Below are positions 36,576 through 61,722 of a stretch of DNA of 64,000 nt, in pieces. Within the stretch, counting starts at the first letter, position 1; each line of letters opens with the position of its first letter. Under the pieces are notes generated by a model. That model searched no databases and was not told the origin of the DNA. It worked only from the letters and a program-made list of their open reading frames with translations. Both the position numbers and the translations under genes were made by a program. Origin of the DNA: Ascidia mentula (taxonomy: Eukaryota > Chordata > Ascidiacea > Phlebobranchia > Ascidiidae); assembly GCA_947561715.1 (NCBI GenBank), contig OX387198.1, positions 8,308,001 through 8,372,000 of the forward strand, read 5' to 3'.

Positions 36576-39573
36576 CTGGGTTTTTTTTTTGTGTCATTTG
36601 TCGGTCATTGACACAATTTTTTCAGAAATGACACAAAAAATAAAAGCCATTTTGGACACAATGTCCCAAAGGAAATTGACTGGTAGATTATTCGAGCGTC
36701 TCATCGCTAGGCGAAAATTCCCTTTGTGTTGCCCCGGACGTCGCTTTTGTGATTCTCGGCGAATCGTTTTCGAGCGGCCGACGGTCGATAACACCCAGCA
36801 GGACGCGGATTTTGCGACTTTTATGCGATAAGAATACGGATACAGTTGCATGGTTTGGTAACAATAGGGATTATTGTCCTTCCTTTGTTTTTTTTTAAAT
36901 TAAACAAACGCAGCGTATTGCCTATATAAACAAGTCTACTCCTGAAAGTTGCTTACATTTTTTTTGAACAATCGCAATACCACATAACTCACTGAATAAT
37001 GGAGCGCGAAGAACAACCTAGAAAAAGAGCTAAAGTTGTATCTGGCACAGGCCAATCCTCGTTGCTAGGATTTTTTACTCAGCCTGCAAGTAGAGTAAGT
37101 GAGAGTAGAAAAAATGCAGAGGTGGAAACGGAAACAACCGAAAGTTCGGGATCAGGATCAGGGGAAAGTTCAAACATTCAAAAAACGTAAGTGGACTGGT
37201 TTTAAATAATCAAAAATTGTCTTAATTTTGAATATTTGTTTAGGTCTGCAAAACGTTTCTTCAGACTTGCGTGGCTTAGCATCTTCTCCTGGCTCCGCTA
37301 CGATAAAGAAACAACCATTGCTTATTGTCATGTATGCCGAGAAGCGAAAGTGAAAAATAGATTTGCGGAGGGGACGAAAGGAACTGCAGGGGGATGGCGT
37401 GTGACCCAGCTGGAAGACCACCAGAAATCCAAGCAGCACAAGTTTGCGCAATCAGCAACTCATGAGCGCAGCAATTGGGAAGAAACGTTGGGCCGATCGG
37501 TAGTTCGAGCAGCTCCTCATACAAAAAGTACTATTTGCTTCATACAATAAACATCTTTGTTGTTCTGTTGTTGATTAGTTTTTCTCCTTTTTCAGGTCTG
37601 ATGATGAATGTTTTGTTTTGTGTCCAAAATGAACGCCCGATACAGTTTGCAACATCACTGCATGATCTGACGAGCACTCAGATTCATGTTGCAACATCAG
37701 GTTCCTGCAAAATTCCTGATGATCACCGGTCCAATGCTTCAACTTATACGTTTTTGGAAGCAATGGATCAGTGCCAAGTCGAACTTGACACAAATGTTAT
37801 AAAGTCTGCACCATTTTTTTCCATGCAAATTGATGAAACGACTGATGTGTCCCAGCAGAAGACCGCCTTAATATTTGTTAATTACATTTCGAAGCAATTC
37901 ACACTAGAAACTCTTCACTGGGAAGTGGTTCCACTTCAATCTGCAACTGCTACGTCGATTACGAGTTCAATTTTAGAATCGTTTAGCAAGAGAAACGTGG
38001 CATTGGACAAGTGCGTGTTGTTTGTTTCCGATGGGGCCAGTACTATGCTGGGATGCAGGAATGGGGTTGCGCAGAAGTTGAAACAACACTGTCCCCTCAT
38101 GCTTGAGCTTCATTGCGCTCCACATCGAGAAGCTTTGTGCGTGAAAGACGCGTACAGTTCAAATGAACTGGTGACAACGGTAGATGCGCAGTTACGGTCG
38201 TTAATTTCGTTTCTGCGCACCAGCAAAAATCTGGCATCCCTGCGCGAATTGGCAGAAATACTAAATGAGGTAAGACATGCTAAATAGTATTTTATGTCAT
38301 ATTTTATTAACAAAATATTTTTTTTTAGGATTTTGTATCTCCTGAACGGGTGCATGACATAAGATGGCTTTCCAGACTGGGCGCAGTTAACAAAATTTGG
38401 AGAAGCTTGCCAACCATTTGCCAATTTCTGGAAAATTTAAGTCACGATTCCGCAACAGGTTCAATTGCGGAAGGGCATGCAAGAAACGTACAAACCAAGC
38501 CTTTTTTGATGACGTTGGCCGCTATGTGCGATGTACTAGCGGTGACTGGGCGGCTCAACAAGTCTTTTCAAAGGTACGGATTGAGTATTATGTCTCCTGT
38601 AAGTTCTAAACAAATAATATTGTTTCAGACACGGGCTTCATCCTTTCGACCTTCGAAAAAAAGTTCAAGCCGCCAGAGAGGAACTACAAGCAACGATGCT
38701 GGAGGCCGATGGAACTTTGAAGATTTCGCCGACACTCAACAAATTAGATAAATTGATTGCAGAAAAAAAAATTCCTTTGACAACCTCTCGTACTCGAAAT
38801 GTTCCAGACGTCAACACAACAAAAAAATCTCTTGCAAAATTTGTCAGTGACATTATTTGTAATTTAAACGACCGATTTCCTGAAGAGAGAAGTGATTCCA
38901 TCTTTGGCCACGCAAAAATTTTTGTGCCAGACAATTTTCCGGAGAACTCTGATGGCATTCTATCATATGGCAATAATAGCATCAGAGCTTTGGCGGCATT
39001 TTATAAATTGGAACAAAATGATATCGAATCAGAATGGTCAAACTTTAAATTTGAAGTAATGCGCAATTGCCAAACAGAAGATGACTGGCGCAAAGTGCTT
39101 AAAATAGCTGCTAAGCGGGATGAAGATTGGCCAAATCTTTCAGTAATTGCAAATGTGTTACTTGTTTTTAATGCGGAAAACGCAACTGTTGAAAGGGGGT
39201 TTAGCCTGTTAACACGTTTAAAAACCCCAATAAGAAACCGTTTGCAGTGTTGCACCGCCGACACCCTTATGCGTTTGAGGCTCAACGCATTATCGTTTAA
39301 AGAATTTAACTACGACAGTGCATATGCGAAATGGTCAAGTAGCGCGAAACGAATGAGGTATAAACCCGATGCGTAGTATTGTGTTTTTGTGTTGCGTTTG
39401 TTTATGTTGCAAAGTTGTTGTTAATAAAGAATGCGTTTCCTTATTTCTTTCTGTTATATCGGCAAAATAAAAATATTATATCGTAAATGACCAAAATAAA
39501 TTGAAAATGACCTAAATTTTTGCTGGCATTTTGGTCATTTGACATAATTTTTTTGGTGAAAAAAAAAACCCAG
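36576..39573 (+). mobile_element. Complete hAT transposon, 2998 bp
   Basis: Both ends read CTGGGTTTTTTTTTT when viewed inward (15-bp inverted repeat), followed by subterminal repeats of the type TCATTTG/GGTCATTT. A perfect 8-bp duplication GCTGTAGG flanks it (36568-36575, 39574-39581). It contains one five-exon transposase gene on the plus strand. Perfect target copies and an open transposase point to a recent insertion, possibly still polymorphic. Confidence 0.93.
36999..39376 (+). CDS. hAT-family transposase
   Basis: Five exons: 36999 to about 37188, about 37244-37527, about 37596-38270, 38329-38573, about 38629-39376. The start ATG follows an AT-rich leader inside the element; the protein is about 640 residues. 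Exon 2 carries a TTF/BED-like zinc-binding region (WLRYDKETTIAYCHVC...HQKSKQH). Exon 3 has the catalytic-core block FFSMQIDETTDVSQQ and the LELHCAPHREAL motif. Exon 5 ends with the hAT dimerisation region (WPNLSVIANVLLVFNAENA, then ERGFSLLTRLKTPIRNRL). Small introns with GT-AG ends keep the frame. I see no internal stop or frameshift, so it is likely competent or only recently silenced. Confidence 0.9.
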
Positions 39574-44628: not shown

Positions 44629-46198
44629 AACTGTTTTCCTACAGGCTATCTGAAAATGCTCCAGCTAAGTCTATCAAAAAAGCACAACGTCAACTTGTGC
44701 ATTCAACATTACAATAATTTATTCAATGTCTTAGAATCGCACGACCGCAACCTGGCTGTTAAACCGCCGTAGTCTACGTAAACTCTCCCAGGTAATGCTG
44801 GTATTCAAGACAAAGACAAAGAGTGTCACGTTTCAATCTTTTAATCTTCTAATTTCGGGCGTATAAAGAACCTACGTATAAAATCAGTTTACAACAAGTG
44901 TCTTACATTTCAGGACGAAAATCTTGTCGGCTCCAGTTTTGGTGCACACACACTCACGCTGTACGCGCGTGGGTAGTTAGTCTAGCAATGCCCACAGGCA
45001 CGAAAACGTCATGACGGTAACGAAAAACGACGACATAATGGTCACACGACACACGTGCACAGTTTCTTATGTTTGAATTGGCCATAGATTAACTTCCAAT
45101 CTTCTCGCAAAAACTGCGCAATTGCGAGGTTTGTTTTCTGGCAAAACCAGTATAGTGCGTGGCTGCGTAGCTCGCACCTTGCACTACCATTGACTCTGGA
45201 ATCGAAAGCTTCTCTCGCAAGATTCCCGTGATCCAAACGTCGTCGACACGAAGTGGTTCAAAATCACGGGAAATTTTTAGGAGCCTTTGAGCCATGCCCA
45301 CGGAAGTAGCGTACATGCCGCCGAGGCAAGATTTCTGGCCCGTACTCCTCCTTGGAGATGAACCACTTGCTTCCTGCATTGCGAAATGGCCTGGCCTTGT
45401 CAAGTACACGATACAGACATATTAGAGGAAAGATATATGTGGCGTTGCTGCCAAAGATGTTCATGTTGGACTCGATGGTTTCTTGCATGACACCAAGATT
45501 CACGAGAAAGTCATCGTCCGCTGTCGCGTACAAATAATGATGTGGAAGGTTTTCTGTTGCCCATTGCATTCCCGTTAGCGTTTTTGTTGCTATGTGCCTA
45601 CAGTTACAAGAATGTGTGCTTGGGGTTTAGTACAATGAGATAATTTGCCGTTCTCATATATGTTTCTTTATGCGCTATTACGATTCCAAAAATGCTACAT
45701 CATCCTTAACCAACGCACTGCACGTTAATAGGGCTTGTACAAAAATCATTATATTTTAAGGGAACAATAATGATTATTGGAATATTGGACTATTTACAGG
45801 CGTCTAAAATACCGAAATGGAAGACGCGGTAGAAGGTACGGACAATCATTTCTACCTTCATTGACTATGAATGATACCGCGCCCAACGAAGCTGCTTTGT
45901 ATGCCACAGGTGTACGATCTTGCGTGAATGGGAAAAAAACACAGTAGTCTTTGTGCGTCTTTCAACCAGCAAACCAACCAGTTTGTTATTGTAATATACC
46001 TGTAATCGTCTGGACCGTTATAGTTCAATATGTCAGAGTTCCTCAAAGCTTCCTCCCGCAGCAAATCTTTTGTCATCTGGTTATCCGGGGCCCCGATGAC
46101 AAAAATAACCTGCATGAAGCCAGTTGAATTATGAATCTGACGCTCTTCTGGTGGAGAACAACAAATATACACCTTTTGTTTAAAAAAGATTGTATTTT

Positions 46199-46246
46199 CT
46201 GACGTTTCGCCTGTACGTACGACTAGGCTTCTTCAGAGAATAAAAC
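46199..46246 (-). ncRNA. Hammerhead ribozyme-like motif (minus arm)
   Basis: Mirror image of the motif at 46868-46925: CTGAAGA, helix GCCT/AGGC, GAAACGTC. It is present because the palindrome duplicates the 3' UTR of the Penelope element on the other strand. Confidence 0.55.
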
Positions 46247-46867
46247 AAACACAGTAGCGAAGCGAACCAACAGGGCAAAGAAATTGAGCGACGAAAAAAC
46301 AAAAGGGCGTAACAGCTAAAACACAGCGGGACATAATTCAATGGACAACATCGATCATGGGTCAAACGGCCAAACATGAGAAACAAAAGTCACGAATTGT
46401 TACGGGCGAAATTGCGGAACACGGGCGAAAGTACTTTTCCATCGTTCCGATTTAAAACATTCGGTAGCGAATTAATATAATAATTTTCCACAACCAACCG
46501 TTTTGCCAAAATTGTTTCTTGTTTTAATACTTTTGCTTCCTTCCAATTGATACGGTGGTCGGATCAATTGGAAGGAAGCAAAAGTATTAAAACAAGAAAC
46601 AATTTTGGCAAAACGGTTGGTTGTGGAAAATTATTATATTAATTCGCTACCGAATGTTTTAAATCGGAACGATGGAAAAGTACTTTCGCCCGTGTTCCGC
46701 AATTTCGCCCGTAACAATTCGTGACTTTTGTTTCTCATGTTTGGCCGTTTGACCCATGATCGATGTTGTCCATTGAATTATGTCCCGCTGTGTTTTAGCT
46801 GTTACGCCCTTTTGTTTTTTCGTCGCTCAATTTCTTTGCCCTGTTGGTTCGCTTCGCTACTGTGTTT

Positions 46868-46925
46868 GTTTTATTCTCTGAAGAAGCCTAGTCGTACGTA
46901 CAGGCGAAACGTCAGAAAATACAAT
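46868..46925 (+). ncRNA. Hammerhead ribozyme-like motif (plus arm)
   Basis: CTGAAGA (46878-46884) matches the CUGANGA core. GCCT (46886-46889) pairs with AGGC (46902-46905) as helix II. GAAAC (46906-46910) and GTC follow, so helix III would be only AC/GU. Flanking TTCT and AGAA form a short helix I. A self-complementary ACGU helix III is the known hallmark of small hammerhead variants of Penelope-like elements that cleave as dimers. Sequence evidence only. Confidence 0.6.
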
Positions 46926-47767
46926 CTTTTTTAAACAAAAGGTGTATATTTGTTGTTCTCCACCAGAAGAGCGTCAGATTCATAATTCATTATGATACCA
47001 GGTGGTCAAAGCCTATTTTCAGTTTTCATGAAGCCAGTTTGTATGAAATTCCAATAACCCCAAGTGCGACGAACCAGATTGCGTTTTTGGAAGTTGCCAG
47101 CCGTTGATTTTATGAACACTACCAGGTTCCAATTCCTATCTGCATACAAAATAACAAGTTACACTTCATTATTATTGAAAATGTTGCATAACGGCGTGTA
47201 TAAAGAATTTCGTTTATTTGAGATCTCCAGTGTTTCTTTGTTGTCGTCAGGAAAATAACATCAACCGATAAACTTCCCAACGTAACCAAGTTAAACGTCA
47301 ATCCAAGTTGTTGGGTTGAAGAATAGGATTTAAGCACGCTGCCAAAACTTAAACAAGCGCTTGTTACGCTGTTTCAGAAACATCAATGCTGCATTTACTA
47401 TACATGAATGTTTGGTTTGACTTATATATGACAATGCTGCAATCGCTACAAAAACATATTTTTTAATTTCAGTGCTGGACGACCCGGAAAGAGGAACTGA
47501 CAACCACCAGTGTGTAAATGAGCTTAATTTCTGTGACGTTAAACCAGGGCCGCTTACCATTCCTTGTCCTGCAAGGGTTGCAATTTTCCTCCAACAGAGC
47601 CCTTGGCTCATGAAAGTAGGTCAAATTGACATAGTCTTTGCTTCGGTTTGAGACTATTGGAAGTTCACTGTTGTTGACAGCGACAGGTTCTTCCGTTACG
47701 TTTACGGGCGTATCAGTCCAGTTGACATAGTCGTTGATTTCGTAGCTGGGTATCCAATTCCGAATCC

Positions 47768-50263: not shown

Positions 50264-52147
50264 AACTGTTTTCCTACAGGCTATCTGAAAATGCTCCAGC
50301 TAAGTCTATCAAAAAAGCATAACGTCAACTTGTGCATTCAACATTACAATAATTTATTCAATGTCTTAGAATCGCACGACCGCAACCTGGCTGTTAAACC
50401 GCCGTAGTCTACGTAAACTCTCCCAGGTAATGCTGGTATTCAAGACAAAGACAAAGAGTGTCACGTTTCAATCTTTTAATCTTCTAATTTCGGGCGTATA
50501 AAGAACCTACGTATAAAATCAGTTTACAACAAGTGTCTTACATTTCAGGACGAAAATCTTGTCGGCTCCAGTTTTGGTGCACACACACTCACGCTGTACG
50601 CGCGTGGGTAGTTAGTCTAGCAATGCCCACAGGCACGAAAACGTCATGACGGTAACGAAAAACGACGACATAATGGTCACACGACACACGTGCACAGTTT
50701 CTTATGTTTGAATTGGCCATAGATTAACTTCCAATCTTCTCGCAAAAACTGCGCAATTGCGAGGTTTGTTTTCTGGCAAAACCAGTATAGTGCGTGGCTG
50801 CGTAGCTCGCACCTTGCACTACCATTGACTCTGGAATCGAAAGCTTCTCTCGCAAGATTCCCGTGATCCAAACGTCGTCGACACGAAGTGGTTCAAAATC
50901 ACGGGAAATTTTTAGGAGCCTTTGAGCCATGCCCACGGAAGTAGCGTACATGCCGCCGAGGCAAGATTTCTGGCCCGTACTCCTCCTTGGAGATGAACCA
51001 CTTGCTTCCTGCATTGCGAAATGGCCTGGCCTTGTCAAGTACACGATACAGACATATTAGAGGAAAGATATATGTGGCGTTGCTGCCAAAGATGTTCATG
51101 TTGGACTCGATGGTTTCTTGCATGACACCAAGATTCACGAGAAAGTCATCGTCCGCTGTCGCGTACAAATAATGATGTGGAAGGTTTTCTGTTGCCCATT
51201 GCATTCCCGTTAGCGTTTTTGTTGCTATGTGCCTACAGTTACAAGAATGTGTGCTTGGGGTTTAGTACAATGAGATAATTTGCCGTTCTCATATATGTTT
51301 CTTTATGCGCTATTACGATTCCAAAAATGCTACATCATCCTTAACCAACGCACTGCACGTTAATAGGGCTTGTACAAAAATCATTATATTTTAAGGAAAC
51401 AAAACAGCCACTAATGATTATTGGAATATTAACAGGCGTCTAAAATACCGAAATGGAAGACGCGGTAGAAGGTACGGACAATCATTTCTACCTTCATTGA
51501 CTATGAATGATACCGCGCCCAACGAAGCTGCTTTGTATGCCACAGGTGTACGATCTTGCGTGAATGGGAAAAAAACACAGTAGTCTTTGTGCGTCTTTCA
51601 ACCAGCAAACCAACCAGTTTGTTATTGTAATATACCTGTAATCGTCTGGACCGTTATAGTTCAATATGTCAGAGTTCCTCAAAGCTTCCTCCCGCAGCAA
51701 ATCTTTTGTCATCTGGTTATCCGGGGCCCCGATGACAAAAATAACCTGCATGAAGCCAGTTTGTATGAAATTCCAGTAACCCCAAGTGCGACGAACCAGA
51801 TTGCGTTTTTGGAAGTTGCCAGCCGTTGATTTTATGAACACTACCAGGTTCCAATTCCTATCTGCATACAAAATAACAAGTTAAGGTGGCTGTACACAGA
51901 ATGCGTAATGCGTGAACGTACGTAAATCGCATCCGAAAACGGACCGACAGATTACGCACGTAAACGGACCGAATTTTCGTTCCGAACCATCCGTTAAAAG
52001 GCACTGTACACAGAATCCGTTATCGTACGAATTTACGCTTGGTTGCGTATGTCAACAAAGGACCGATGACTGCTGCTGCTGCGCACATGTACAATACAAT
52101 TGCAGATCAGTGATTTTCCTTTGGTATCCTTGCTCAAAGATGGCGGA

Positions 52148-52275
52148 TACTTATATCAACAATAATGGCAAACGTTGAAACTGCAACTCAAGTTGTTAAG
52201 GCTACTGTGGTTTTACATAACTGGTTGCAGAGCAAAAATTTGAAGAAGTCTTTGGAAACTAGGGAATGCAGTGCA
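52148..52275 (+). pseudogene. Harbinger DDE transposase C-terminal remnant
   Basis: A short reading contains VVKATVVLHNWLQ, matching the 'KA...LHN(F/Y)L' block near the C-terminus of Harbinger transposases. No upstream catalytic region remains within the element, and a stop lies about 30 codons downstream. Confidence 0.6.
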
Positions 52276-53499
52276 TTGGTGCCTATGAAGTAACTGTTGA
52301 ACTTGTTGAGGGAGCTTGACGACAAGAGGAAACTGTATGTCTTCCCAACATCAAACATTTCACCACCATTCATTGTATGCAAGGCAAATAAGAGACTTGC
52401 TGAAGGACTACTTCAGCAGCAGCCAGGGGGAAGTTGCTTGGCATTACAACATTTTTTTTCCCTGTTTCACAGGGAACAACCCTTGAGTAAGGCCGACTGC
52501 TTTTCTTTTTTATGTTTATTGTTTTTTTTTGTAATAAAATAACAGTTAATGCATACTGAATGTTGGCATATATAACAATGCAAATTGAAGAGGTATTTGA
52601 AGGAAATAAAAAACACTACAGATGAATAGAACACTGGCAGTAAAATACTAAAGAAAGTGAACAGTGAAATGAAAAGAGCAGTACCAATACTTGTGTTTCA
52701 AGTAAATTGCAGTCCAACATGTGAAAAAGAACTGAAAGCAGTTCGATATTTGCATATATACAATGAATACAAAGCTATACAATCTCCGCAGTTTCCTGCA
52801 TCTCAACTTTGTCATAATCTGCCAGTATTATAGTAATGGCTACAAAAGCTTTATGAATGTTGTTTGGCAATGCATCTAATCTTTGTTCAATAATTTTGGC
52901 ATAATGGAATGCTGAGGTTTTTTTAGTTGTTCAGAAATCAAAGCATTGGTTGTGTGCAAAGTTTCACCCAATTGTTCCCATGCAAAATCATTGCAATTAA
53001 ATGATATAAATTATTTTACATATCCTCTTGCTAGGTTTAAATAATATTACCGATAGATCCACACCCGCTGCCTTCCTCCTTCTCTTTTTACCAACTGAAC
53101 TGGGTGAATGACCAGTTAATGCTTGTTGATTTCGTTTTTTTGGGGGTTTCTAAACTTTCAGGTGTACCAATTTCATGTACTTCGGGCTGTTTACCTGAAG
53201 TATCAGGACTTATGCCTAAAAAATACAGGACCTTGTCCTAACAGTTTATTAACATGCTGTTGATTGTATTACCAATGTCTGCTGCCTCACAAAAAGCAGA
53301 GTAAACTTGTTGTTCTGCTGTCAAAGTTGGGTCCTCTTGCAAAATGTGAGACTCAGTGCTAAACATGCAGTAAGTTCAGATACAACCAAATAAGTTTAAT
53401 AACAATATTGCATGCGATGCTTTGTATAATTGTCCAAAAACATCATTGATGAAAAGTATGGCCAGGTTGGTGTAGGTATGTAACCAGATCCACTTGGTC

Positions 53500-53775
53500 T
53501 CTGCTTCTTTCTTTTTGCGTACATACGTATCTCTTAGGTTTCTCCATTTTTCTTTGGCACTTTTATCTTTCAAAGGCAGGCGAAAACATTATCTTTGCTT
53601 GGACAAATTGTACAACAATAAAATTTCGAAGTTTTATAATTTTTGTTAACTGTTATACCACACGCTTTGCCAACAGCATCCCATGCATTTTTGAAAATAT
53701 ATTTTGACACAATGTTTTGTATTTTTTATATCATATAAAGCTGGTCTTTCACGGACAAGTTCAATCAGTTTTTTT
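53500..53775 (-). pseudogene. MADF (Myb/SANT-like) protein remnant of the Harbinger element
   Basis: Minus-strand pieces in order read VRERPALYDIKN, then FKNAWDAVGKACG after a one-base frame change, then SAKEKWRNLRDTYVRKKKE. This is the MADF DNA-binding domain usually encoded as the second protein of Harbinger elements. The frameshift and split exons indicate decay. Confidence 0.65.
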
Positions 53776-55347
53776 CTTTACTATATTCCTACCAGTTGTT
53801 ATGCCATTGTAACAGCTATTATTACTGATAATCACTGCCTCAAAAAGATATTTATCCCAAACAAGGGTAAAAAATCAACTGTTGATCTTAAAAGTACCAT
53901 TTTAACCTTTCAAGTATGCATAAATATTACAAAAACCCACTTTATTAAAGATGGGTATATTTTCACAGCAACAAAATCGCATGCGTACGTGCGTAAAAAT
54001 CAAACATGTTTGATCGCGTCGGATGGCCTTGCGTTAACGCATGGTTCGCAAGTTTCGGACGTTACGCATTCTGTGTAAAGACCCCGTCGGAAGGCGACGG
54101 ACCGAATTTTTACGCGCGTATGCGCTTACGGACGAAAACGGACCGAAACGCATCCTGTGTACAGCCACCTTTACACTTCATTATTATTGAAAATGTTGCA
54201 TAACGGCGTGTATAAAGAATTTCGTTTATTTGAGATCTCCAGTGTTTCTTTGTTGTCGTCAGGAAAATAACATCAACCGATAAACTTCCCAACGTAACCA
54301 AGTTAAACGTCAATCCAAGTTGTTGGGTTGAAGAATAGGATTTAAGCACGCTGCCAAAACTTAAACAAGCGCTTGTTACGCTGTTTCAGAAACATCAATG
54401 CTGCATTTACTATACATGAATGTTTGGTTTGACTTATATATGACAATGCTGCAATCGCTACAAAAACATATTTTTTAATTTCAGTGCTGGACGACCCGGA
54501 AAGAGGAACTGACAACCACCAGTGTGTAAATGAGCTTAGTTTCTGTGACGTTAAACCAGGGCCGCTTACCATTCCTTGTCCTGCAAGGGTTGCAATTTTC
54601 CTCCAACAGAGCCCTTGGCTCATGAAAGTAGGTCAAATTGACATAGTCTTTGCTTCGGTTTGAGACTATTGGAAGTTCACTGTTGTTGACAGCGACAGGT
54701 TCTTCCGTTACGTTTACGGGCGTATCAGTCCAGTTGACATAGTCGTTGATTTCGTAGCTGGGTATCCAATTCCGAATCCTAAAGTGCACATAATCATGCC
54801 GAGGCTTATAGTGCTGTTTGTGGAAGCAACTACGTTTTTGTGTTTGTAAATTTATGTAGCGTATTTACTCGATTGTAAGCCACAGCTTATAAACTTTTTT
54901 AACCTACCGTTTGTGCAATCGAGGACGGCTTACATTTATTTTTTATTTGAAATTACGCAATGTGAAGAGCGTTAGCCATGTCAACAACAAAAACAAAAGA
55001 GCGTTCATCTCTTGTATATTTGCATAACAATTTTGGTACAAACACGTTTCCAGCAACGTTTCTGTCGAACAGCAAAAAGCACTTTGTAAAAAGCCCAAGT
55101 ATAATATGTCGCTTTGCCTGAAATAGATATCATATAGGAAAGAGTCACCTGAAAAAGTCCCTAAAGATTGGTTTTGGGTTAGAAGAATGGACTAAACGTG
55201 TGTCATCTATTTTGATTTCTACATCTAATGTAACACCGCTTTGCGTAAAACAATGGTAATGTTGACTCCTAATATGGCTCCGTGAGCAGACTTACTTTTT
55301 GGAATAGAAAGACACGTTGCGATATCAGGCGGAATTACAGTGACCAA

Positions 55348-59834: not shown

Positions 59835-61722
59835 TCACACGACACACGTGCACAGTTTCTTATGTTTGAATTTGCCGTAGATTAACTTCCAATCTTCTCG
59901 CATAAAACTGCGCAAATCCGAGGTTTGTTTCCTGGCAAAACCAGTATAGTGCGTGGCTGCGGAGCTCGCACCTTTCACTACCATTGACTCTGGAATCGAA
60001 AGCTTCTCTCGCAAGATTCCCGTGATCCAAACGTCGTCGACACGAAGTGGCTCAATATCACGGGAAATGTTTAGGAGCCTTTGAGCCATGCCCACGGAAG
60101 TAGCGTACATGCCGCCGAGGCAAGATTTCGGATAGATTTCTGGCCCGTACTCCTCCTTGGAGATGAACCACTTGCTTCCTGCATTGCGAAATGGCCTGGC
60201 CTTGTCAAGTACACGATACAGACATATTAGAGGAAAGATATATGTGGCGTTGCTGCCAAAGATGTTCATGTTAGACTCGATGGTTTCTTGCATGACACCA
60301 AGATTCACGAGAAAGTCATCGTCCGCTGTCGCGTACAAATAATGATGTGGAAGGTTTTCTGTTGCCCATTGCATTCCCGTTAGCGTTTTTGTTGCTATGT
60401 GCCTACAGTTACAAGAATGTGTGCTTTGGTTTTGATACAATGAGATAATTTGCCGTTGTCATATATGTTTCTTTATTCGTTATCAAAAATGCTACATCAT
60501 CCTTAACCAACGCACTGCACGTTAATAGGGCTTGTACAAAAATCATTATATTTTAAGGAAACAAAAGAGCCACTAATGATTATTGGAATATTGGAATATT
60601 TACAGGCGTCTAAAATACCGAAATGGAAGACGCGGTAGAAGGTACGGACAATCATTTCTACCTTCATTGACTATGAATGATACCGCGCCCAACGAAGCTG
60701 CTTTGTATGCCACAGGTGTACGATCTTGCGTGAATGGGAAAAAAACACAGTAGTCTTTGTGCGTCTTTCAACCAGCAAACCAACCAGTTTGTTATTGTAA
60801 TATACCTGTAGTCGTCTGGACCGTTATAGTTCAATATGTCAGAATTCCTCAAAGCTTCCTCCCGCAGCAAATCTTTTGTCATCTGGTTATCCGGGGCCCC
60901 GATGACAAAAATAACCTGCATGAAGCCAGTTTGTATGAAATTCCAGTAACCCCAAGTGCGCCGAACAAGATTGCGACTTTGGAAGTTGCCAGCCGTTGAT
61001 TTTACGAACACTACCAGGTTCCAATTCCTATCTGCATACAGAATAACAAGTTACACATTTATTGTTATTGAAAATGTTGCATTCCGATAAACTTCCCAAC
61101 GTAACCAAGTTAAACGTCAATCCAAGTTGTTGGGTTGAAGAGTAGGATTTAGTCATGCTGCCAAAACTTAAACAAGCGTTTGTTACGCTGTTTCAGAAAC
61201 ACCCATGCTGCATTTACTACATGAATGTTTGGTTTGACTTATATATGACAATGCCCCAATCGCTACAAAAACATATTTTTCAATTTCAGTGGTGGACGAA
61301 CCGGAAAGAGGAACTGACAACCACCAATGTGTAAATGAGCTTAATTTCTGTGACGTTAAACCAGGGCCGCTTACCATTCCTTGTCCTGCAAGGGTTGCAA
61401 TTTTCCTCCAACAGAATCTTTGGCTCATGAAAGTAGGTCAAATTGATATAGTCTTCGCTTCGGTTTGATACTATTGGAAGATTACTGTTGTTGACAGCGA
61501 CAGGTTCTTCCGTTACGTTTACAGGCGTATCAGTCCAGTTGACATAGTCGTTGATTTCGTAGTTGGGTATCCAATTCCGAATCCTTTGAAATTACACAAT
61601 GTGAAAAACGTTAGCCATGTCAACAACAAAAACAAAAAAACGTTCACCACTCGTAGATTTGTTTCCAGCAACGTTTCTGTCGAACAGCAAAAAGCACTTT
61701 GTAAAAAGCCCAAGTATAGCAC
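59835..61722 (-). CDS. GT31 beta-1,3-galactosyltransferase-like gene B3, catalytic part intact, 5' end doubtful
   Basis: Exons: candidate anchor region 61722-61598, stem 61583-61375, RRTW exon 61031-60806 (RRTWGYW), catalytic exon 60412-59835 (stop TAA). The last exon is open, with ATADDDFLVNLG (D-D-D codons 60315-60323), SCLGGMYATSVG and VDDVWITGILREK, all expected of a working GT31 enzyme. The problem is the 5' end. Intron 1 is reduced to 14 bp (61584-61597, GTG...AAG), too short to splice; read through, it shifts the frame. The ATG used in B1/B2 is GTG here, though another ATG lies upstream at 61722. B3 is either a recent pseudogene or uses an unseen first exon. Confidence 0.65.

What the first reader, a model, noticed from the sequence alone, without database searches (positions are those of the whole stretch)
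46113..47039. Perfect 2 x 426-bp palindrome of truncated Penelope-like elements in a gene exon
Both arms carry the same last 51 codons of a Penelope-type protein, the same stop and the same 3' UTR, and meet head-to-head with 13 bp between. The whole sits between exact 13-bp duplications in exon 3 of B1. A palindrome this perfect at birth suggests template switching or paired integration during target-primed reverse transcription.
Basis: partly seen in the sequence, partly recalled or inferred. Interest (0 to 1): 0.85.

Follow-up and report, generated by a model that had tools for sequence, protein, structure and literature searches.

The report
Head-to-head Penelope insertion, both strands primed
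A jumping gene of the Penelope type landed in a galactosyltransferase gene as two short mirror-image copies, and its relatives in the same genome suggest this happens because both cut DNA strands each start their own copy of the element.

Summary
The palindrome is real: perfect arms 46125-46551 and 46563-46989 (427 bp, 11-bp centre) inside 13-bp target duplications, with two uninterrupted paralogous sites in the window. In 34 of 34 head-to-head insertions of this family that could be judged (20 in a sample not chosen for tails, 14 reached through tails), exactly one outer end has the tail. Of these, 31 share an exact flank word of 10 bp or more; none of 8 single-sided or tandem copies does. 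The two arms of a locus mostly come from the same source sequence, and target ends overlap the element by 1-3 nt at both ends in most scored loci. With published biochemistry of an Anolis Penelope element, the best reading is two-sided target-primed reverse transcription followed by joining of the two cDNAs. The published self-priming model predicts neither the tail rule nor the unequal arms. The locus is an unusually symmetric member of a known kind; its near-equal inner ends may be chance. The one-tail rule is the useful part.

The parts
46113..46125 (.). Left copy of the 13-bp target site duplication CATGAAGCCAGTT (last T also matches the first base of the element end TGAATT)
46125..46562 (-). 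Arm 1: 5'-truncated Penelope-like element, minus strand, 3' end to the left, WITHOUT tail; breaks at position 2660 of the reference map
46390..46562 (-). Arm 1 coding remnant: C-terminal end of the RT/GIY-YIG protein with its stop (46390-46392 on the minus strand)
   Evidence: read directly; relative
46552..46562 (.). Asymmetric centre, 11 bp (ACGGTGGTCGG): belongs to arm 1, which runs 11 nt further 5' than arm 2; junction 46562|46563 is blunt
46563..46989 (+). Arm 2: same element, plus strand; 427 bp perfectly complementary to arm 1
46563..46724 (+). Arm 2 coding remnant, 53 codons and TGA
   Evidence: read directly; relative, its domains
46990..47028 (+). Element tail, 39 bp, on arm 2 only; last CA also matches the target
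47027..47039 (.). Right copy of the target site duplication
51749..51761 (.). Paralogous uninterrupted target site (single CATGAAGCCAGTT) in a second gene copy
60919..60931 (.). Paralogous uninterrupted target site in a third gene copy
46040..47140 (-). Galactosyltransferase exon interrupted by the 914-bp insertion (approximate limits)

Best explanation
A young insertion of a Penelope-like retroelement made by two-sided target-primed reverse transcription. The element's enzyme cuts both strands of the target, leaving 3' overhangs of roughly 10-13 nt (later the target duplication). Each overhang's 3' end pairs by 1-3 nt with a ...TTCA site in the element RNA and primes its own cDNA: one at the upstream start site (no tail, arm 1), the other 39 nt downstream (with tail, arm 2). 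Both cDNAs stopped early, near the 3' end of the coding region, 11 nt apart; their free 3' ends were joined bluntly and filled in, giving head-to-head arms that look like a perfect palindrome. Shown: the anatomy, the one-tail rule, target duplication with pairs but not with the single-sided copies tested, a shared source of the arms in most informative cases, overlap at both target ends. Inferred: the overhang geometry, end joining as the joining step, and that both cDNAs were copied from one RNA molecule.
For: One tail and one no-tail outer end in 34 of 34 head-to-head loci that could be judged: 20 of 20 in the sample not chosen for tails and 14 of 14 reached via tail sites (outer ends of L053 and L063 re-set). 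Exact shared flank word of at least 10 bp in 31 of 34 of these, in 0 of 8 single-sided or tandem copies, in 3 of 500 mismatched flank pairs. In 24 loci scored, the target continues into the element end by at least 1 nt at the no-tail end in 21 and at the tail end in 19 (values; 9 of the 33 rows left out): both ends look primed in the same way. Arms of one locus differ less than arms of different loci (0.49% against 0.94%, 18 loci, permutation p 2e-4) and six loci, the window among them, have locus-private variants in both arms; alleles shared among loci agree in 8 of 10 arm comparisons. Arm-end distances within loci are smaller than after re-pairing (median 508 against 1032, P 0.022), as expected if the two cDNAs share a template. 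PMC11167929 (abstract and main text read): an Anolis element cuts and extends both strands and starts at two adjacent internal RNA sites that bound the tail.
Against: Arm ends within 11 nt of each other are what a hairpin or fold-back would give; here they are put down to chance or a shared RNA 5' end (P 0.09). 2 of 10 allele comparisons are discordant (L024, L036). Arm lengths are not rank-correlated (Spearman 0.27, p 0.25). PMC11167929 saw no strand difference in start site in vitro, so the one-of-each choice needs an added rule. Single-sided copies exist (7 of 30 first-sample loci), so two-sided priming is not the only outcome. Gene conversion between arms could also make them alike. The first sample is the 40 best-scored of 351 candidates, so it leans to young copies.
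Confidence: 0.78

Rival explanations
1. Self-priming: one cDNA (or an antisense RNA) folds back and copies itself, so one arm is a copy of the other and the 11-bp centre is the hairpin loop. Self-priming is the mechanism suggested for palindromes in rotifer Penelope elements (PMC3846280, discussion read).
For: Perfect arms, small centre that itself pairs over 2 bp; arms share a private variant.
Against: The outer ends differ by the tail in 34 of 34 loci; arm breaks differ by more than 100 nt in 18 of 20 loci, where a fold-back predicts a small loop; both target ends show similar overlap; in the window the primer end would be a mismatch (A 46552 opposite G 46562, read directly).
Confidence: 0.1
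2. Two separate insertions or template jumps: two independent truncated copies landed next to each other in opposite orientation.
For: Copies of this family can be compound (L018, L022, the C70 cluster).
Against: One pair of 13-bp duplications spans both arms and the paralogs show a single uninterrupted site; blunt junction; shared private variant; the one-tail rule.
Confidence: 0.03
3. Assembly or sequencing fold-back artefact.
For: Perfect palindromes are a typical long-read chimera form (general knowledge); reads were not available.
Against: Tail on one side only, different flanks on the two sides joined by a duplication that matches uninterrupted paralogs, and 33 other head-to-head loci, most with unequal arms.
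Confidence: 0.02
4. Two-sided priming as in the best explanation, but on two different RNA molecules rather than one (a sub-case, not exclusive of it).
For: 2 of 10 allele comparisons discordant; tail arm longer than no-tail arm in 6 of 20 loci, awkward if a trailing enzyme follows a leading one on the same RNA.
Against: 8 of 10 concordant and private variants shared, though two RNAs from one source copy would do the same; free choice of site on two RNAs would give same-type pairs, of which there are none in the 20 loci not chosen for tails.
Confidence: 0.3

Closest known systems
Penelope-like elements with GIY-YIG endonuclease, inverted pLTR form (Adineta vaga Pen families, PMC3846280; passages and discussion read)
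   Same: Head-to-head pLTRs, short target duplications, a 31-bp tail optionally on one of the inverted pLTRs, palindromes at the inverted junction
   Different: Here both arms are short and nearly equal; the one-tail rule and its tie to target duplication are counted; the published explanation (self-priming) does not fit these counts
PAc (Poseidon) of Anolis carolinensis (PMC11167929; abstract and main text read)
   Same: Tail equals the stretch between two adjacent start sites; both strands cut and extended in vitro
   Different: Described from tandem copies; the main text does not assign the two start sites to the two ends of one insertion; no strand difference seen in vitro
LINE-1 twin priming (mostly recalled; PMC2837659 seen only as a search listing with the start of its abstract)
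   Same: Two target strands prime on element RNA, giving an inverted part between target duplications
   Different: In twin priming the two segments cover different parts of the RNA (recalled); here both arms include the same 3' end

Membership tests
Penelope-like elements (EN-containing) | Single ORF with reverse transcriptase and C-terminal GIY-YIG endonuclease | tested here: met
   Related copy L019: RVT_1 and GIY-YIG above cut-offs; the window copy holds only the last 53-56 codons
Penelope-like elements (EN-containing) | pLTRs in direct or inverted arrangement | tested here: met
   20 independent head-to-head events and 2 direct tandems among 30 first-sample loci
Penelope-like elements (EN-containing) | Optional 30-40 bp tail at the 3' end | tested here: met
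   39 bp; junction pattern at 119 sites with at most 2 mismatches
Penelope-like elements (EN-containing) | Short target site duplications | tested here: met
   13 bp here; exact 10 bp or longer in 31 of 34 head-to-head loci
Penelope-like elements (EN-containing) | Hammerhead ribozyme in the pLTR | tested here: inconclusive
   A CUGAAGA...GAAA core is visible by eye at 46878-46909 (motif recalled), but no Rfam hammerhead hit at E up to 1 or 10, and the minimum-energy fold is not diagnostic (z -1.28)
Self-primed (fold-back) palindrome | Both outer ends identical and both inner breaks within a short loop | tested here: not met
   The short loop is met in the window; identical outer ends are not, here or in any of 34 loci

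The most novel reading that the evidence does not exclude
Penelope-type transposition is obligately asymmetric: a protein dimer on one RNA uses two different start sites, one per target strand, so that each complete insertion is a head-to-head pair with exactly one tail, and target duplications arise only when both strands are primed; single-sided copies are failed second primings. The palindrome is the case in which both enzymes ran to the same RNA 5' end.
Probability: 0.45. Interest if true: 0.75.

Novelty: new member of a known kind. Interest (0 to 1): 0.52.

Why it matters
[quoted passage not shown] The counts here turn two known oddities, the optional tail and the inverted pLTRs, into one testable rule: each end of an insertion records which RNA start site primed that strand. 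They also weigh against the published self-priming reading, at least in this genome.

Tried and rejected
Rfam scan of the palindrome gave 27 matches, mostly microRNA families and all below gathering score, as any perfect hairpin would; rejected. A hammerhead ribozyme could not be confirmed. A strict 'one enzyme follows the other on the same RNA' model would make the no-tail arm always longer; it is longer in 14 of 20, so the strict form is rejected. Near-coincidence of the two arm ends as evidence for a hairpin: re-pairing arms among 20 loci gives P 0.094 for a pair within 10 nt, 0.090 for two within 40 nt and 0.18 for three within 110 nt (which used a window difference of 10; the exact walk gives 11), so not pressed. 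Exact overlap at the inner junctions was tried: 26 of 28 loci scored, 10 with overlap, 1 blunt (the window), 15 with apparent filler, but base changes in older copies stop the walk, so no claim is made beyond the window. L011 could not be tested for a duplication because its 3' end lies outside the fetched stretch; its row is not informative. Structure prediction, fold search and the search of solved structures were not used.

Full report
Observation. The sequence holds a perfect inverted repeat, 46125-46551 against 46563-46989, 427 bp per arm with an 11-bp centre (one search reports 430 nt with 5 between by bridging one mismatch). It lies between two exact copies of CATGAAGCCAGTT. The flank 45600-46124 has three matches in the whole genome, all in this window (100, 98 and 95% identity). 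The two other copies show the same site uninterrupted with a single CATGAAGCCAGTT, at 51749 and 60919. The insertion is therefore 914 bp including one duplicated target word. I infer that it happened after this copy separated from its nearest paralog, whose left flank is 99.2% identical over 1628 columns. The exon encodes part of a Galactosyl_T domain.

Between arm 2 and the right duplication lie 37 bp that look like host DNA. They are element sequence: a 71-base query over them gave 40 scored matches of 167 candidates, the window's own included, and the junction pattern occurs at 119 sites with at most 2 mismatches, against none for the reversed pattern. Counting the CA shared with the target, the tail is 39 bp, 46990-47028. 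Arm 1 lacks it. The two arms are thus not equal at their outer ends.

First sample. One search scored the 40 best of 351 candidates and listed 46 matches. I fetched the stretches around them (29 loci) and mapped all, with the window, onto one contiguous reference stretch, L016:4629-7725. Of 30 loci, 20 are independent head-to-head insertions including the window, 1 (L037) was dropped as a duplicate of L036, 7 are single-sided (L012, L014, L020, L026, L029, L034, L035), and 2 are direct tandems (L011, L016). In 20 of 20 head-to-head events exactly one outer 3' end has the tail; the other stops within a few bases of the no-tail position. The query was arm 1 of the window, which has no tail, so this sample is not chosen on that point, though it leans to young, well-matching copies.

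Second sample. I fetched 20 of the tail sites listed that were not yet covered, 2.2 kb each (L046-L065), and added one cluster on C70 from the tail matches (L040, L043). Of these 21, 14 show both outer ends and all 14 pair a tail with a no-tail end; 7 (L048, L052, L057-L061) cannot be judged because an end lies outside the stretch, is damaged or was not found (for L053 and L063 the tail lies outside the mapped body and the outer end was re-set). This sample can only exclude tail-tail pairs. Coordinates alone suggest five more pairs that follow the rule, at C1:8532262/8532318, C70:3922351/3925798, C71:6185485/6185580, C72:7411226/7411751 and C73:4738036/4738339; both lists are cut at 100 places, so these are not counted.

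Target duplications. The longest common word of the two outer flanks is 10 bp or more in 31 of 34 head-to-head loci; L053, L054 and L062 fall below (8, 6 and 6 bp), and L053 and L062 keep a near match with one mismatch. L055's 19-bp word is inflated by a local repeat; by eye its duplication is about 13 bp. The word is 4 to 6 bp in 8 of 8 copies without an inverted partner (7 single-sided and the tandem L016), and 10 bp in 3 of 500 mismatched flank pairs. L028 keeps its duplication behind a 17-bp filler. So target duplication goes with two-sided insertions and was not seen with the others tested. In 24 loci the overlap between target and element was scored: at least one base at the no-tail end in 21 and at the tail end in 19 (values entered). 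Nine of the 33 rows were left out because no duplication was called there (L028, L053, L054, L063) or the ends are damaged, mismatched or ambiguous (L022, L036, L055, L062, L065). With an assumed chance of 0.3 for a one-base overlap the binomial P is 8e-9 and 9e-7. Both element ends begin TGAA when read inwards, so both target 3' ends tend to finish in T, TG or TGA and can pair with ...TTCA in the RNA.

Source of the arms. In the part present in both arms, arms of one locus differ by 0.49% and arms of different loci by 0.94% (18 loci; the permutation on those with more than 60 aligned bases gives p 2e-4). Variants seen in one locus only, but in both its arms, occur in L017, L018, L032, L033, L036 and the window. 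Alleles found in two or more loci agree between arms in 8 of 10 comparisons, against means of 1.95 agreeing and 12.76 disagreeing in permuted pairs; the two discordant cases are L024 and L036. The arms thus mostly come from one RNA or from RNAs of one source copy. Later gene conversion between arms could add to the likeness. The single difference counted for the window is the central mismatch.

Mechanism. The 2024 study of an Anolis Penelope (PMC11167929; abstract and main text read) reports that the purified protein cuts and extends both strands, that reverse transcription starts at two adjacent internal sites, and that the tail is the stretch between them; it saw no difference in start site between the strands. 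Putting that beside the counts above, I conclude that each strand of the cut target primed its own cDNA, one at each start site, and that the free cDNA ends were then joined head-to-head. For the window this gives arm 1 from the upstream site and arm 2 from the downstream site, joined bluntly at 46562|46563. The rotifer study (PMC3846280; passages and discussion read) explained palindromes by self-priming on an antisense template. That predicts alike outer ends and a small loop; here the outer ends differ in 34 of 34 loci, and the inner breaks lie more than 100 nt apart in 18 of 20. The window's own inner breaks are 11 nt apart, which fits either view: re-pairing arms among the 20 loci gives P 0.09 for such a pair. 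Over all 20 loci the median distance between the two breaks is 508, against 1032 after re-pairing (P 0.022), which hints at a shared template, while the rank correlation is weak (0.27, p 0.25).

What remains open. Whether one RNA or two serve the two strands; why one of each start site is used, when the in vitro study saw no strand difference; how the cDNA ends are joined. Near-equal arms are not unique to the window: L055 has breaks 16 nt apart and L051 19 nt apart in BLAST coordinates. The organism was not identified.

Novelty. Head-to-head Penelope copies with short target duplications and a tail optionally on one side are described (PMC3846280). I found no statement that every head-to-head pair has exactly one tail, or that duplications are confined to such pairs, in what I read of PMC3846280 (passages, discussion), PMC11167929 (abstract, main text) and PMC12910113 (12 of 18 passages found), nor a title or abstract start to that effect among the papers listed by seven searches of the held library. 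Most subscription papers, the early Drosophila ones probably among them, are not in that library, and one 2021 paper could not be opened, so this is no proof of absence in print. The locus is a new member of a known kind; the rule raises its interest.

Noticed in passing
G000 C70:3829790-3833660 (L040-L043): A head-to-head cluster whose arms carry several direct ~358-bp repeats, each a partial pLTR with tail and the following stretch (R221-581), in both arms; one outer end with and one without tail, 10-bp duplication.
   Followed up: partly
window 51884-54170: The second gene copy has about 2.3 kb of extra DNA here compared with the first copy, where the flanking stretches meet at about 47160; its nature was not looked at.
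   Followed up: no
window 37466-39376: Open frames that by eye resemble an hAT-type transposase (recalled resemblance, no search run).
   Followed up: no
L055:1847-2060 and L051:1959-2074: Two more near-palindromic head-to-head insertions with arms of roughly 50-120 bp and inner breaks under 20 nt apart.
   Followed up: partly
L028:940-956: A 17-bp filler between the left target duplication and the no-tail end.
   Followed up: no
L030:5982-6003: A 22-bp filler at the inner junction that looks pieced together from nearby arm sequence.
   Followed up: no
L036 and L037: The same head-to-head insertion with the same target word at two places on C1 about 195 kb apart: a copied segment.
   Followed up: no
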